Assembly (NCBI GenBank): GCA_903869345.1
Contig: CAIPYM010000029.1
Location: 1 to 59,741, forward strand
DNA: 59,741 bases
Reading direction: 5' to 3'
From: an uncultured Pseudomonadota bacterium
Lineage (GTDB): Bacteria; Pseudomonadota; Alphaproteobacteria; UBA9219
Every line of letters starts with the position of its first letter. Within the stretch, counting starts at the first letter, position 1. The position numbers and the translations under genes were made by a program. This document shows, in pieces, positions 31,375 to 34,200 of the stretch. The notes beneath the pieces are model-generated. The model was not told the origin of the DNA, made no database searches, and saw only the letters and a list, made by a program, of their open reading frames with translations.

Positions 31375-32229
31375 ATGGCGGACGCGCAAAAGGACCAAGC
31401 CAGCGATCAAGGGGCCCCCCTTCAAACGGCGCTCGCGGCGTTTCGCCAGATCGGCATGCCGCTCGTGCAGGCTTTGGTGGAGGCGACGCCCGGCGGCGGT
31501 GCGCCGACGGACGGGGAAAAGCCGCCCCTGGACACCGCGCCGTTCGCGGAGCTTGTGGACAGCACCGTGACGTTCAGCCGGGAGCTCGCGGCACGGCTCG
31601 GCGCGGACGAGAACGCTCTGGATTCCGGGGTGCGGTGGGCTCTGGCGGGCTCGGCCAGTCAGGTGGTCGCGGCGCATTACCGGGCACGAGGCAAACCGCT
31701 GTCGGCCGAAGAAGCCCAGCATTTGGCGAGCGTCGCGGCCACGTTGCAGCAAAAGTTCAAGGCCCAGATTCCCGCGGGCGGGGAGTCGCTGCCCAACACC
31801 GTCGCGACGTTCCGCGCCAAAATGACGGAAGCCATTGTTCCCGTGATCGGGGCCGTGGCCCAGTATTCCTTTGGGCGGGCCGAACACGCTCTTTTGGCCG
31901 AGATTGCCGAACGGCTCATCCGAACCGCCGATCAAGTCACGCGGGCGCTGGCCCCCGCAGGGACCACGGCCGAAGATTGGCGCATTTTGTGCTGGAACAT
32001 CTTGCGCGCGGCGGGGCAGGTTTACACCGAATGCCATTACGCCGAGGCCGACCGCCTTTTGTACATGAACCCGGAAGAACGCACGGCCTATTTCGCGCAA
32101 AACAACAATGTCGTTCCCATGACCCAGGTGTGGCAGGCCTTTAATCAGCGTATGGCGATGCTGGCCACGCTCGCCACGTACCTGGACGTGCCCGCCTCGG
32201 CGAGGCTGGACCAGCAAGCCTGGCCCTGA
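31375..32229 (+). CDS. unknown protein, first of a four-gene envelope cluster
   Basis: A 284-aa soluble protein with no signal peptide, membrane segment or recognised motif. It is Ala-rich and mostly helical by composition. Residues 60-110 (VTFSRELAARLGADENAL) and the C-terminal half (ILCWNILRAAGQVYTECHYAEADRLLYM) look structured. GAGGG lies 4 bases before the ATG. It is followed after 42 bases by a lytic transglycosylase, then a DsbC-like protein and a small membrane protein, all in the same direction. The company suggests an envelope or secretion role, but the sequence does not prove it. Confidence 0.6.
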   Translation: MADAQKDQASDQGAPLQTALAAFRQIGMPLVQALVEATPGGGAPTDGEKPPLDTAPFAELVDSTVTFSRELAARLGADENALDSGVRWALAGSASQVVAAHYRARGKPLSAEEAQHLASVAATLQQKFKAQIPAGGESLPNTVATFRAKMTEAIVPVIGAVAQYSFGRAEHALLAEIAERLIRTADQVTRALAPAGTTAEDWRILCWNILRAAGQVYTECHYAEADRLLYMNPEERTAYFAQNNNVVPMTQVWQAFNQRMAMLATLATYLDVPASARLDQQAWP

Positions 32230-32271
32230 TCGTCGGGACGTGACGAGGATCGGAAAGAACAGGAGGCGTTT

Positions 32272-32733
32272 GTGATTACCGCTCAAGCTCTTGCGGCGTG
32301 CCTGATGGTGGCATCGCACACTTACCAGGTGCCGCCTGCCGTGATGATTGGCATCATGCACGTTGAAGGGGGGCGCGTTGGCCAAGAAGTTGGCCCCAAT
32401 GTGAATGGGACGTACGACCTCGGCCCGATGCAGGTGAACACGCATTGGATGCCAATGTTGGCGCGGGCGTGGCGGGTTTCAGATTCCCACGCACACAAAG
32501 CCGTGCGTGACGATGGTTGCGTGAACGTCCATGTTGCGGCGTGGATTCTCAGCCGCGAGATCAAACGTTCGGGATCGCTCTACGGGGGGATCGCACGCTA
32601 CCATTCAGCAACCCCCAGTCTTGGGTACCGTTATGCGGCAAAAGTCATCGCGGCCATGGATAAGAAGGGCTTGATTAAACGCGGCCATGCGGCCAATTAT
32701 CCTCTTGTCCCTCGGCGTTATGCCCAGCGCTGA
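32272..32733 (+). CDS. lytic-transglycosylase-like (SLT) protein
   Basis: A 153-aa lysozyme-like protein of the type that opens peptidoglycan for secretion systems (VirB1/IagB class). The likely catalytic Glu is E32 in IMHVEGGRVG; YDLGPMQVNTHWM matches the conserved GxMQ(I/V)N motif, and ARYHSATPSLGYRYAAKV matches the C-terminal Y-x-x-x-V helix. No cleavable signal peptide is obvious, so export would be unusual. GTG start with AGGAGG 5 bases upstream. It overlaps the extended frame of the following gene but not its likely start. Confidence 0.8.
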   Translation: MITAQALAACLMVASHTYQVPPAVMIGIMHVEGGRVGQEVGPNVNGTYDLGPMQVNTHWMPMLARAWRVSDSHAHKAVRDDGCVNVHVAAWILSREIKRSGSLYGGIARYHSATPSLGYRYAAKVIAAMDKKGLIKRGHAANYPLVPRRYAQR

Positions 32734-32767
32734 GTCGGCTCGTTTCGTTTTCGCGGGAGGTCTCCTC

Positions 32768-33790
32768 ATGGCGCTTCGTTGTTCGGTTCCAAAGACCTTT
32801 GGAAGGGTCGGCCTTGTCCTCGCGCTGGGTGTTCTCGGAGCCTCCTCCGCTCAGGCCCAGAAGTCTCCGGCAACCCCGTTTGTCGGGAGCAACGCCCTTT
32901 TCGACACCCAGACTCCCCCGCTGGACATCAAGGGGATTCCGCTTTTGAACGCGCTGGTCAAGCAGGGGGCGACGCTGCATTACCTCGGTGCGCGGTCGGG
33001 TCTGCGCGGGTGGCTGATCCTGAAGGATGGCCAGCTTCAAATGGCCTACGCAACGAGCGATGGCAAGACGATTTTGGTTGGTGGCCTGTTCACCGAGGAT
33101 GGCGAAAACGTTTCGTCCGTTCAGATCAAGAACCTCGCGGACACGGACCCCAACGTCCGCCGTCTTCTGGATGACGCGATTGAACGAGGGAGGACCCTCA
33201 GTCACAACGAAGGGGGAGACACTTCGTCCGCGAACGCCGAAAGCATCGGGCCCTTGCCCGGTCAAGCCCCCTCTTCGCCCGAGGCAACCGCCACGGCCCT
33301 GGCAAAGAACTTGCCCACCGTTCCCACATCACCGGGCGAGCGGCTTTACCAAGACTTCAAGAGGGCCTCCAGCATTTCCGTCGGTGCCAAGGACAACAAG
33401 GCCGAAGTGCTGATGGTGATCTCCGCGTCGTGCCCGTACTGCAAAGAAGTCTGGAAAATGCTTCGCGATGACGTGAAGGCGAATAAATTGCAAATACGGC
33501 TCATCCCCGTGGCGTCGGCGGGTGAAAACATCAACCCTGCCGCGCGGCTTCTGGAAAGCGACCAGCCCCTTGAGGCCTGGGATAAGCACGTCAACGGCGA
33601 TGCCAGCGCTCTTTCGGGAACGCCTGCCGAAGTTTATCGGCAAGCCGTTGGAGGGAACAGCAACATGGTGGAGCGGTGGAACATCAACATGACGCCGTAC
33701 CTTGTTTACCGGGACAAGAGCGGGCACGTGAAAATTATTCAAGGCGTCCCCGCGCACAAGAGCGACCTGCTCAATGACTTGCCGTCCTAA
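32768..33790 (+). CDS. DsbC/DsbG-like periplasmic thioredoxin-fold protein
   Basis: A 340-aa exported protein: signal peptide about 1-31 ending SAQA, an N-terminal region (about 40-130) that resembles a dimerisation domain, a low-complexity linker (about 150-190), and a thioredoxin fold from about 205 with the active site CPYC in ISASCPYCKEVW and the cis-Pro near NMTPYLVYRDKSG. This suggests a disulfide isomerase or reductase. GGGAGG lies 7 bases before the ATG at 32768. Dsb-like proteins with an adjacent transglycosylase occur in type IV secretion clusters, but no secretion channel gene is in this window. Confidence 0.78.
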   Translation: MALRCSVPKTFGRVGLVLALGVLGASSAQAQKSPATPFVGSNALFDTQTPPLDIKGIPLLNALVKQGATLHYLGARSGLRGWLILKDGQLQMAYATSDGKTILVGGLFTEDGENVSSVQIKNLADTDPNVRRLLDDAIERGRTLSHNEGGDTSSANAESIGPLPGQAPSSPEATATALAKNLPTVPTSPGERLYQDFKRASSISVGAKDNKAEVLMVISASCPYCKEVWKMLRDDVKANKLQIRLIPVASAGENINPAARLLESDQPLEAWDKHVNGDASALSGTPAEVYRQAVGGNSNMVERWNINMTPYLVYRDKSGHVKIIQGVPAHKSDLLNDLPS

Positions 33791-33813
33791 CCGACGGAAA
33801 AGGACCTTTGCCC

Positions 33814-34200
33814 ATGGCCGATTCCCCGGACCCCTCCTCGCCTTCCGCCGTGATCCCTGAGTCCTCCGGACAGGGGGGGCCATCCAGCGCGTCGGGCGGG
33901 GGGTCGCCCGCGTCGGTTCTCGTTAAGGGGCTTGCCTACGAAGGGGGGGGTGTGGCCCCTTCGGAAGGCCAAGGAACCGAAGAGTCGGGAGGCATGCCTC
34001 CGTTAGCCACCGGGAAAACCCGCTTCATTGCCGGGCTTCCAGCGTCATGCCTGGTCTACGGAATCGGCGCCGGGGCCCTGTTCGCGGCCTGTATCCGACT
34101 CGCGTTAAGGGGGCACTGGATTTCAGTTCTCTTGGTTCTTCTCCCCGCCGGGTGCCTGGTCGGGTTTTCGATCCTCAGCCTGAAACGGAAGATTGACTAG
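33814..34200 (+). CDS. small membrane protein, unknown
   Basis: A 128-aa protein: residues 1-65 are a Ser/Gly/Pro-rich disordered stretch, then two membrane segments (about 75-94 and 100-120), ending with KRKID. No family recognised. AAGGA lies 9 bases before the ATG; a TTG two codons earlier is in frame. It follows the DsbC-like gene after 23 bases and is the last gene of the cluster. Confidence 0.6.
   Translation: MADSPDPSSPSAVIPESSGQGGPSSASGGGSPASVLVKGLAYEGGGVAPSEGQGTEESGGMPPLATGKTRFIAGLPASCLVYGIGAGALFAACIRLALRGHWISVLLVLLPAGCLVGFSILSLKRKID

What the first reader, a model, noticed from the sequence alone, without database searches (positions are those of the whole stretch)
31375..34200. 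Four-gene cluster: unknown protein, lytic transglycosylase, DsbC-like protein, small membrane protein
Same direction, short gaps and a single promoter. A peptidoglycan-cutting enzyme beside a periplasmic disulfide protein is a pairing seen at type IV secretion or conjugation loci, but no channel genes are here. The 284-aa first protein and the disordered two-segment membrane protein have no recognised family. The transglycosylase lacks an obvious signal peptide.
Basis: partly seen in the sequence, partly recalled or inferred. Interest (0 to 1): 0.55.

Follow-up and report, generated by a model that had tools for sequence, protein, structure and literature searches.

The report
Detached part of a secretion machine
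These four genes are a wall-cutting, protein-folding accessory block of a Legionella-like secretion machine whose channel genes sit elsewhere in the same genome, and the block includes a new protein family that travels with a wall-cutting enzyme that has no export signal.

Summary
The four genes are real. Close relatives carry the same genes directly in front of dotD-dotC-dotB-icmT and type IVB pilus genes, in 20 of 21 loci with room. In this genome the machine is scattered: DotI x2, DotD, DotC, DotB, IcmT and pilus genes on C19; DotG and DotH on C14; DotO on C8; a DotL/TrbC-type coupling protein on C22.

Gene 2 is an EtgA/PilT/TrbN-type lytic transglycosylase without a signal peptide. Gene 3 is a DsbG-like isomerase. 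Gene 4 is a small membrane protein. Gene 1 founds an all-helical family without Pfam, NCBIfam or PDB match. It occurs almost only in genomes with DotC (26 of 28 and 10 of 10), nearly always directly upstream of gene 2.

I read the block as the wall-remodelling module of a chromosomal type IVB system, with protein 1 a cytosolic partner of the leaderless enzyme. The machine link is well supported; the role of protein 1 is inferred. Leaderless relatives exist without protein 1, which weakens the chaperone idea.

The parts
31375..32229 (+). gene A: 284-aa all-helical protein without leader, new family, partner gene of B
   Evidence: No Pfam/NCBIfam match above cut-off; no PDB sequence match (profile best E 0.5); AF2 model pLDDT 82, pTM 0.55, ten helices, no significant PDB fold match. 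Homologues in 28 of 59 relatives and 10 of 385 class genomes, plus G121 on closer look.
32272..32733 (+). gene B: lytic transglycosylase of the EtgA/IagB/PilT/TrbN type, no signal peptide
   Evidence: TrbN E 2.5e-22, IagB 2.9e-12, both below their cut-offs; EtgA by profile E 2.8e-14 and by fold 8urn E 7.3e-6; AF2 pLDDT 86, pTM 0.80, helix 4-18 confident; E32, D49, C10, C83 present in 46 of 46 aligned enzymes.
32768..33790 (+). gene C: exported DsbG-like disulfide isomerase (CPYC at 222-225)
   Evidence: DsbG equivalog E 8e-31, below its cut-off (107.2 against 124 bits); PDB DsbG E 8.7e-17; CxxC invariant in 19 of 19; N-terminus looks like a Sec signal by eye.
33814..34200 (+). gene D: 128-aa protein with a polar N-half and two hydrophobic segments
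   Evidence: Hydropathy; 14-row alignment with P32, P76, Y82, W102 invariant; no family match and no PDB match.

Best explanation
The block is the accessory, wall-remodelling module of a chromosomal type IVB (MPF_I, Dot/Icm-like) secretion system with an R64-type IVB pilus. SHOWN by sequence: linkage to dotDCB-icmT-pil genes in relatives, the presence of the machine elsewhere in this genome, the identity of B (EtgA/PilT-type lytic transglycosylase) and C (DsbG-like isomerase), and near-constant A-B adjacency. INFERRED: B opens peptidoglycan where the channel or pilus crosses it; C forms or corrects disulfides in B (C10-C83) and in the Dot/Pil envelope proteins; D is an inner-membrane anchor or assembly factor; A is the cytosolic partner of B, holding it until it is handed to the machine or membrane. 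I put A-as-partner-of-B at about 0.35, and the module assignment above 0.9.
For: Order A-B-(C)-(D)-DotD in 20 of 21 loci with room, of 27 loci found; 6 end at a contig edge. Genes downstream are DotD, DotC, T2SSE ATPase DotB, IcmT, TcpQ/PilL, secretin, PilO (families read on the C19 homologues). Co-occurrence: 59 relatives, A in 28, DotC in 27, both in 26 (Fisher p 2.4e-13); 385 class genomes, A in 10, DotC in 14, all 10 A genomes have DotC (p 5.7e-17). These p values ignore relatedness. C-A-B or A-B also recur in other families (G348, G267, G167, G133, G121). Own genome machine. 31 of 32 B enzymes from A-bearing loci have only 7-11 residues before the first conserved Cys, while 6 Dot-linked plasmid enzymes without A have leaders (5 as annotated, Kozakia only from an upstream start). 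TrbB, the thioredoxin-like protein of an MPF_I plasmid, is needed for its transfer (PMC6112013, passages and section 9).
Against: In this genome the block lies apart from the other machine genes, so its link rests on relatives. Three class genomes have DotC but no A found (G077, G249, G318). Two relatives have A without DotC (G021, G023; 82% and 79% complete) and one DotC without A (G032, 89%). Leaderless enzymes occur without A: two BfpH-like, an Aeromonas MPF_F, a Vibrio and the G019 enzyme, and pCTX-M3 TrbN is also reported without a signal peptide, so A is not needed for leaderlessness in general. C was not recognised in L067 or L076 and D not in several loci, so the four are not one fixed set. 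No binding or activity is tested.
Confidence: 0.8

Rival explanations
1. A is a structural or regulatory cytosolic subunit of the type IVB coupling or ATPase complex (working like DotY/DotZ, DotN or IcmS/W of Legionella), and its place next to B is only operon order.
For: A has no leader and is all-helical and tracks DotC. Accessory coupling-complex proteins DotY/DotZ are described for Legionella (PMC9300119 and PMC7280309 seen as search listing; PMC12857230 passages). On a Thalassospira plasmid a same-size gene with weak similarity to A sits in the order A?-transglycosylase-DotM-coupling protein.
Against: The Thalassospira similarity is not significant by profile comparison (hhalign probability 0.7%). 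No PDB fold match to a coupling-complex protein was found, which does not exclude one. A keeps B as its neighbour even where both are apart from the dot genes (window; G133, G121).
Confidence: 0.3
2. The system is a DNA-conjugation machine and the block is its ordinary PilT/TrbN plus TrbB set.
For: B and C have counterparts on MPF_I plasmids: PilT and, weakly, TrbB of ColIb-P9, TrbN/TrbB of pCTX-M3 (paper passages), and transglycosylases beside dotDCB-icmT on Acetobacteraceae and Methylocapsa plasmids.
Against: No relaxase of family PF03432 in the genome at E <= 0.1 (other relaxase families not tested). The genes are dispersed over five contigs (C29, C19, C14, C8, C22). A and D have no significant counterpart among the 25 ColIb-P9 proteins tested.
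Confidence: 0.15
3. B serves only the type IVB pilus (as PilT or BfpH do), and A-D belong to pilus rather than channel assembly.
For: Relatives of B include BfpH and PilT; pil genes follow dotDCB-icmT in relatives and on C19.
Against: G121 has C-A-B and DotD-DotC-DotB-IcmT but no pil gene recognised in the 20 kb around its dot genes (the rest of that genome was not searched for pil genes).
Confidence: 0.25
4. B is exported by Sec using its weakly hydrophobic N-terminus uncleaved, so the missing signal peptide means little.
For: Residues 4-18 form a helix that is partly hydrophobic; BfpH-like enzymes share the short N-terminus.
Against: That helix is part of the fold and carries the conserved Cys, aligned with the first Cys of the crystallised EtgA domain; most orthologues have no Lys/Arg before the Cys and B has no hydropathy peak. 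No signal predictor was available.
Confidence: 0.3

Closest known systems
IncI1 plasmid ColIb-P9/R64 transfer and thin-pilus system (MPF_I)
   Same: TraH/TraI/TraJ and a TraK-like protein correspond to DotD/DotC/DotB/IcmT, plus PilL/N/O/P/Q/R; PilT is a relative of B (E 2.7e-11 among 25 proteins); TrbB a weak relative of C (9e-4)
   Different: PilT has a leader (40 residues before the Cys); no significant A or D relative among the 25 proteins tested; genes on a plasmid
IncM plasmid pCTX-M3 trbC-trbB-trbA-trbN
   Same: The paper's table lists TrbN as 131 aa, lytic transglycosylase signature, no signal peptide; TrbB thioredoxin-like, homologues putative disulfide isomerases (PMC6112013 passages and section 9)
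   Different: No A reported in the passages seen; its sequence was not compared here
MPF_I-like plasmids of Acetobacteraceae (Gluconobacter, Acetobacter, Roseomonas, Lichenicola, Kozakia) and Methylocapsa
   Same: Transglycosylase close behind DotD/DotC-DotB-IcmT
   Different: A short hypothetical protein (139 aa in Gluconobacter, 144 in Acetobacter) precedes the enzyme, with no match to A in those two; enzymes carry leaders
EtgA (type III secretion lytic transglycosylase)
   Same: Fold, catalytic Glu and Asp, Cys pair
   Different: Serves another machine; B lacks a leader (that EtgA has one is recalled)
Legionella Dot/Icm with DsbA2 and DotY/DotZ
   Same: Same machine class; depends on a disulfide enzyme (PMC4273665 passages); has accessory coupling proteins
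   Different: No transglycosylase-A pair known to me (recalled); A not shown homologous to DotY or DotZ

Membership tests
Type IVB (Dot/Icm, MPF_I) secretion system, as encoded in this genome | DotD, DotC, DotB, IcmT present | tested here: met
   C19 genes: DotD 1.6e-29, PF16932 2.9e-73, T2SSE 3.1e-37, IcmT_TraK 87 bits over cut-off 40
Type IVB (Dot/Icm, MPF_I) secretion system, as encoded in this genome | Core DotG, DotH, DotI and ATPases DotO, DotL | tested here: met
   TrbI just over cut-off (35.1 against 35 bits) and DotH 6.2e-67; DotI x2; DotO by a relative's protein 1.4e-296; coupling protein by TrbC model 356.6 bits, below its 800 cut-off
Type IVB (Dot/Icm, MPF_I) secretion system, as encoded in this genome | Block A-D physically linked to dot genes in this genome | tested here: not met
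   Block on C29, dot genes on C19, C14, C8, C22; linked in relatives
VirB1/EtgA/PilT-type lytic transglycosylase (B) | SLT fold with catalytic Glu and second acidic residue | tested here: met
VirB1/EtgA/PilT-type lytic transglycosylase (B) | Sec signal peptide | tested here: not met
   (by reading frames and alignment; no predictor)
VirB1/EtgA/PilT-type lytic transglycosylase (B) | Peptidoglycan cleavage | not testable with these tools
   Needs an enzyme assay
DsbG (C) | CxxC thioredoxin domain with conserved cis-Pro position, and N-terminal DsbG domain | tested here: met
   C222, C225 and P310 invariant in 19 rows (that P310 is the cis-Pro is recalled); N-domain chain 2iy2 aligned to residues 60-120, E 0.0015
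DsbG (C) | NCBIfam DsbG equivalog cut-off | tested here: not met
   107.2 against 124 bits: called DsbG-like, not filed as DsbG
DotY/DotZ or other known coupling-complex protein (A) | Sequence or fold similarity | tested here: inconclusive
   No significant match in PDB sequences or folds
Conjugation system | Relaxase | tested here: inconclusive
   PF03432 absent; other relaxase families not searched

The most novel reading that the evidence does not exclude
A is a dedicated chaperone-adaptor that keeps the leaderless transglycosylase inactive and unoxidised in the cytosol and feeds it into the type IVB machine or its pilus, so that the machine exports its own wall-cutter instead of using Sec, as the flagellum does with FlgJ (recalled); C then oxidises it outside. 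In these small-genome Alphaproteobacteria, two of them deposited as Micavibrio, such a cutter could even act on a neighbouring cell.
Probability: 0.17. Interest if true: 0.72.

Novelty: new variant of a known kind. Interest (0 to 1): 0.45.

Why it matters
It assigns a context to an orphan gene block, shows a dispersed type IVB system in a 1.74-Mb alphaproteobacterial genome, and names a protein family (A) that tracks this system across several alphaproteobacterial families without any annotation. It also makes a question testable: how does a wall enzyme with conserved cysteines but no export signal reach the wall, and is A its carrier?

Tried and rejected
Rejected: A as a housekeeping or phage protein (only sub-cut-off hits; the one PDB profile hit, a phage tail protein, E 0.5). 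A as an IncI TraE/TraF/TraG relative (no match). A related to the Thalassospira 282-aa protein: HMM E 6.8e-5 against 13 sequences only but hhalign probability 0.7%, so left as a candidate. A in plasmids: no match with P0001 or the G121 protein, only itself for Thalassospira. A in a 398-genome phylum sample: 3 hits, two from the window's family and one marginal 64-residue hit in the same class (G740, E 4.6e-4). The class sample missed the G121 homologue later found by locus inspection, so absence calls are soft. Fold of A: Foldseek best E 0.38, VIA Z up to 7.8 to designed helical repeats, too low for helical bundles; no coupling-complex protein is listed; residues outside 138-272 were barely tested. 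Contig-end artefact for the split: the block and DotD both lie inside contigs among other genes, though a mis-assembly cannot be excluded without reads. Papers: searches listed no report of this block or of a type IVB system in these bacteria; the phrase 'dot icm' may not match the slashed spelling, so this is weak. PMC3189940 (Micavibrio aeruginosavorus genome, passages only) mentions type IV pili and ICEs and has no DotB. PMC11338181 (passages) discusses the system in Gammaproteobacteria.

Full report
Check. The four ORFs stand as described, on the + strand, with gaps of 42, 34 and 23 bases, between a divergent RNase J-like gene upstream and an Hfq-like gene downstream (names by eye). B starts with GTG behind AGGAGG. 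A consensus scan shows no sigma-70 promoter, so 'a single promoter' is not supported. The window is contig C29 of a 1.74-Mb, 76-contig genome, 99.3% complete.

What the genes are. A: no family above cut-off, no solved relative. B: TrbN and IagB models, EtgA by profile and fold. C: DsbG-like, below the DsbG cut-off, PDB DsbG E 8.7e-17. D: no match, hydrophobic stretches within residues 71-124.

Neighbourhood in relatives. A was found in 28 of 59 relatives and at 27 loci of the GTDB contig collection (most titled only as uncultured Alphaproteobacteria or proteobacteria, two as Micavibrio, one, probably misbinned, as Propionivibrio). In 20 of 21 loci with room, A-B-(C)-(D) is followed on the same strand by DotD; in L076 A is inverted about 3 kb from a B-D-DotD-DotC-DotB-IcmT run; 6 loci end at contig edges. 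Beyond DotD come DotC, DotB, IcmT, a TcpQ/PilL protein, a PilN secretin and PilO (families on the C19 homologues). None of the window's flanking genes tested (UGD, LOG, YggS, RNase J, Hfq, HflX, HemW, SecB) was found in those 27 loci.

The machine in this genome. C19 carries two DotI genes, DotD, DotC, DotB, IcmT, then TcpQ/PilL, secretin, PilO, a T2SSE ATPase and a T2SSF protein. C14 carries TrbI/DotG and DotH. C8 carries DotO. C22 carries a TrbC/DotL-type coupling protein. No PF03432 relaxase was found. Thus the block is a piece of this machine that lies apart from it here. The same separation of A-B from the dot genes occurs in G133 and G121.

Co-occurrence. Relatives: A in 28 of 59, DotC in 27 of 59, both in 26, neither in 30. 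Class sample: A in 10 of 385, DotC in 14 of 385, all 10 inside the 14; locus inspection adds G121, where C-A-B stands alone (hhalign 96%, E 2e-9), making 11 of 14. G077, G249 and G318 have DotC and no A found. Fisher values treat genomes as independent, which they are not.

Leaderless enzyme. Of 32 B-type enzymes from A-bearing loci (L076 and the cut L082 were left out; in L084 and G078 A is cut by the contig end, and in Thalassospira A is only a candidate), 31 have 7-11 residues before the first conserved Cys; G133 has 47 from its first start codon but 8 from an internal Met. In the window no start codon lies in the 14 open codons upstream. Of 14 comparison enzymes from loci without A, which I picked and which are not a random draw, the six beside DotD/DotC-DotB-IcmT have leaders (Kozakia only from an upstream start), as do PilT, Rhodanobacter and Pseudomonas Leaf58; five do not: two BfpH-like, Aeromonas, Vibrio and G019. 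TrbN of pCTX-M3 is also listed without a signal peptide (PMC6112013 passages). So leaderlessness goes with A almost without exception but is not unique to it. Glu32, Asp49, Cys10 and Cys83 are present in all 46. The model places residues 4-18 in the first helix of the fold with high confidence.

How it most likely works. B cuts peptidoglycan where the channel or pilus passes; C handles disulfides of B and of envelope parts; D sits in the inner membrane; A stays in the cytosol as partner of B. The first two follow from known families (VirB1-type enzymes, PMC12857230 passages; disulfide dependence of Dot/Icm through DsbA2, PMC4273665 passages; TrbB needed for transfer in pCTX-M3, PMC6112013 section 9). 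The role of A is inference from adjacency, short or overlapping junctions with B, absence of a leader in both, and the A-B pair persisting where the rest of the locus lies elsewhere.

Verdict. A new variant of a known kind: a type IVB accessory module with one new protein family, displaced from its machine in this genome. The strongest open point is A.

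Noticed in passing
L094 9283-10401, L095 9358-10710, L096 9175-10353: In three genomes of family f138 protein A has a long proline-rich tail with two copies each of a PMSFFK-like motif, the last near the C-terminus; a possible docking motif.
   Followed up: partly
L076 6499-10801: In the MAG titled Lab288P3bin233 the A gene is inverted and about 3 kb from B-D-DotD-DotC-DotB-IcmT, and C was not recognised.
   Followed up: partly
L084 1-3313: A contig filed under Propionivibrio carries A-B-C-D-DotD-DotC closely like the alphaproteobacterial loci; probably a misbinned contig.
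   Followed up: no
L132 7265-7726: G019 lacks A and DotC but has a leaderless transglycosylase inside what looks by eye like a VirB-type locus.
   Followed up: partly
L057 6565-8039: On C19 two tandem DotI/IcmL genes stand where relatives have the A-D block, directly upstream of DotD.
   Followed up: no
L033 14388-15638: A 416-aa protein with an SLT-like stretch (E 2.5e-4, just under cut-off) lies upstream of A in G005, a possible second transglycosylase.
   Followed up: no
L135 3135-6408: Thalassospira xiamenensis plasmid: a 282-aa protein overlapping a leaderless transglycosylase, then DotM and a coupling protein; weak similarity to A.
   Followed up: partly
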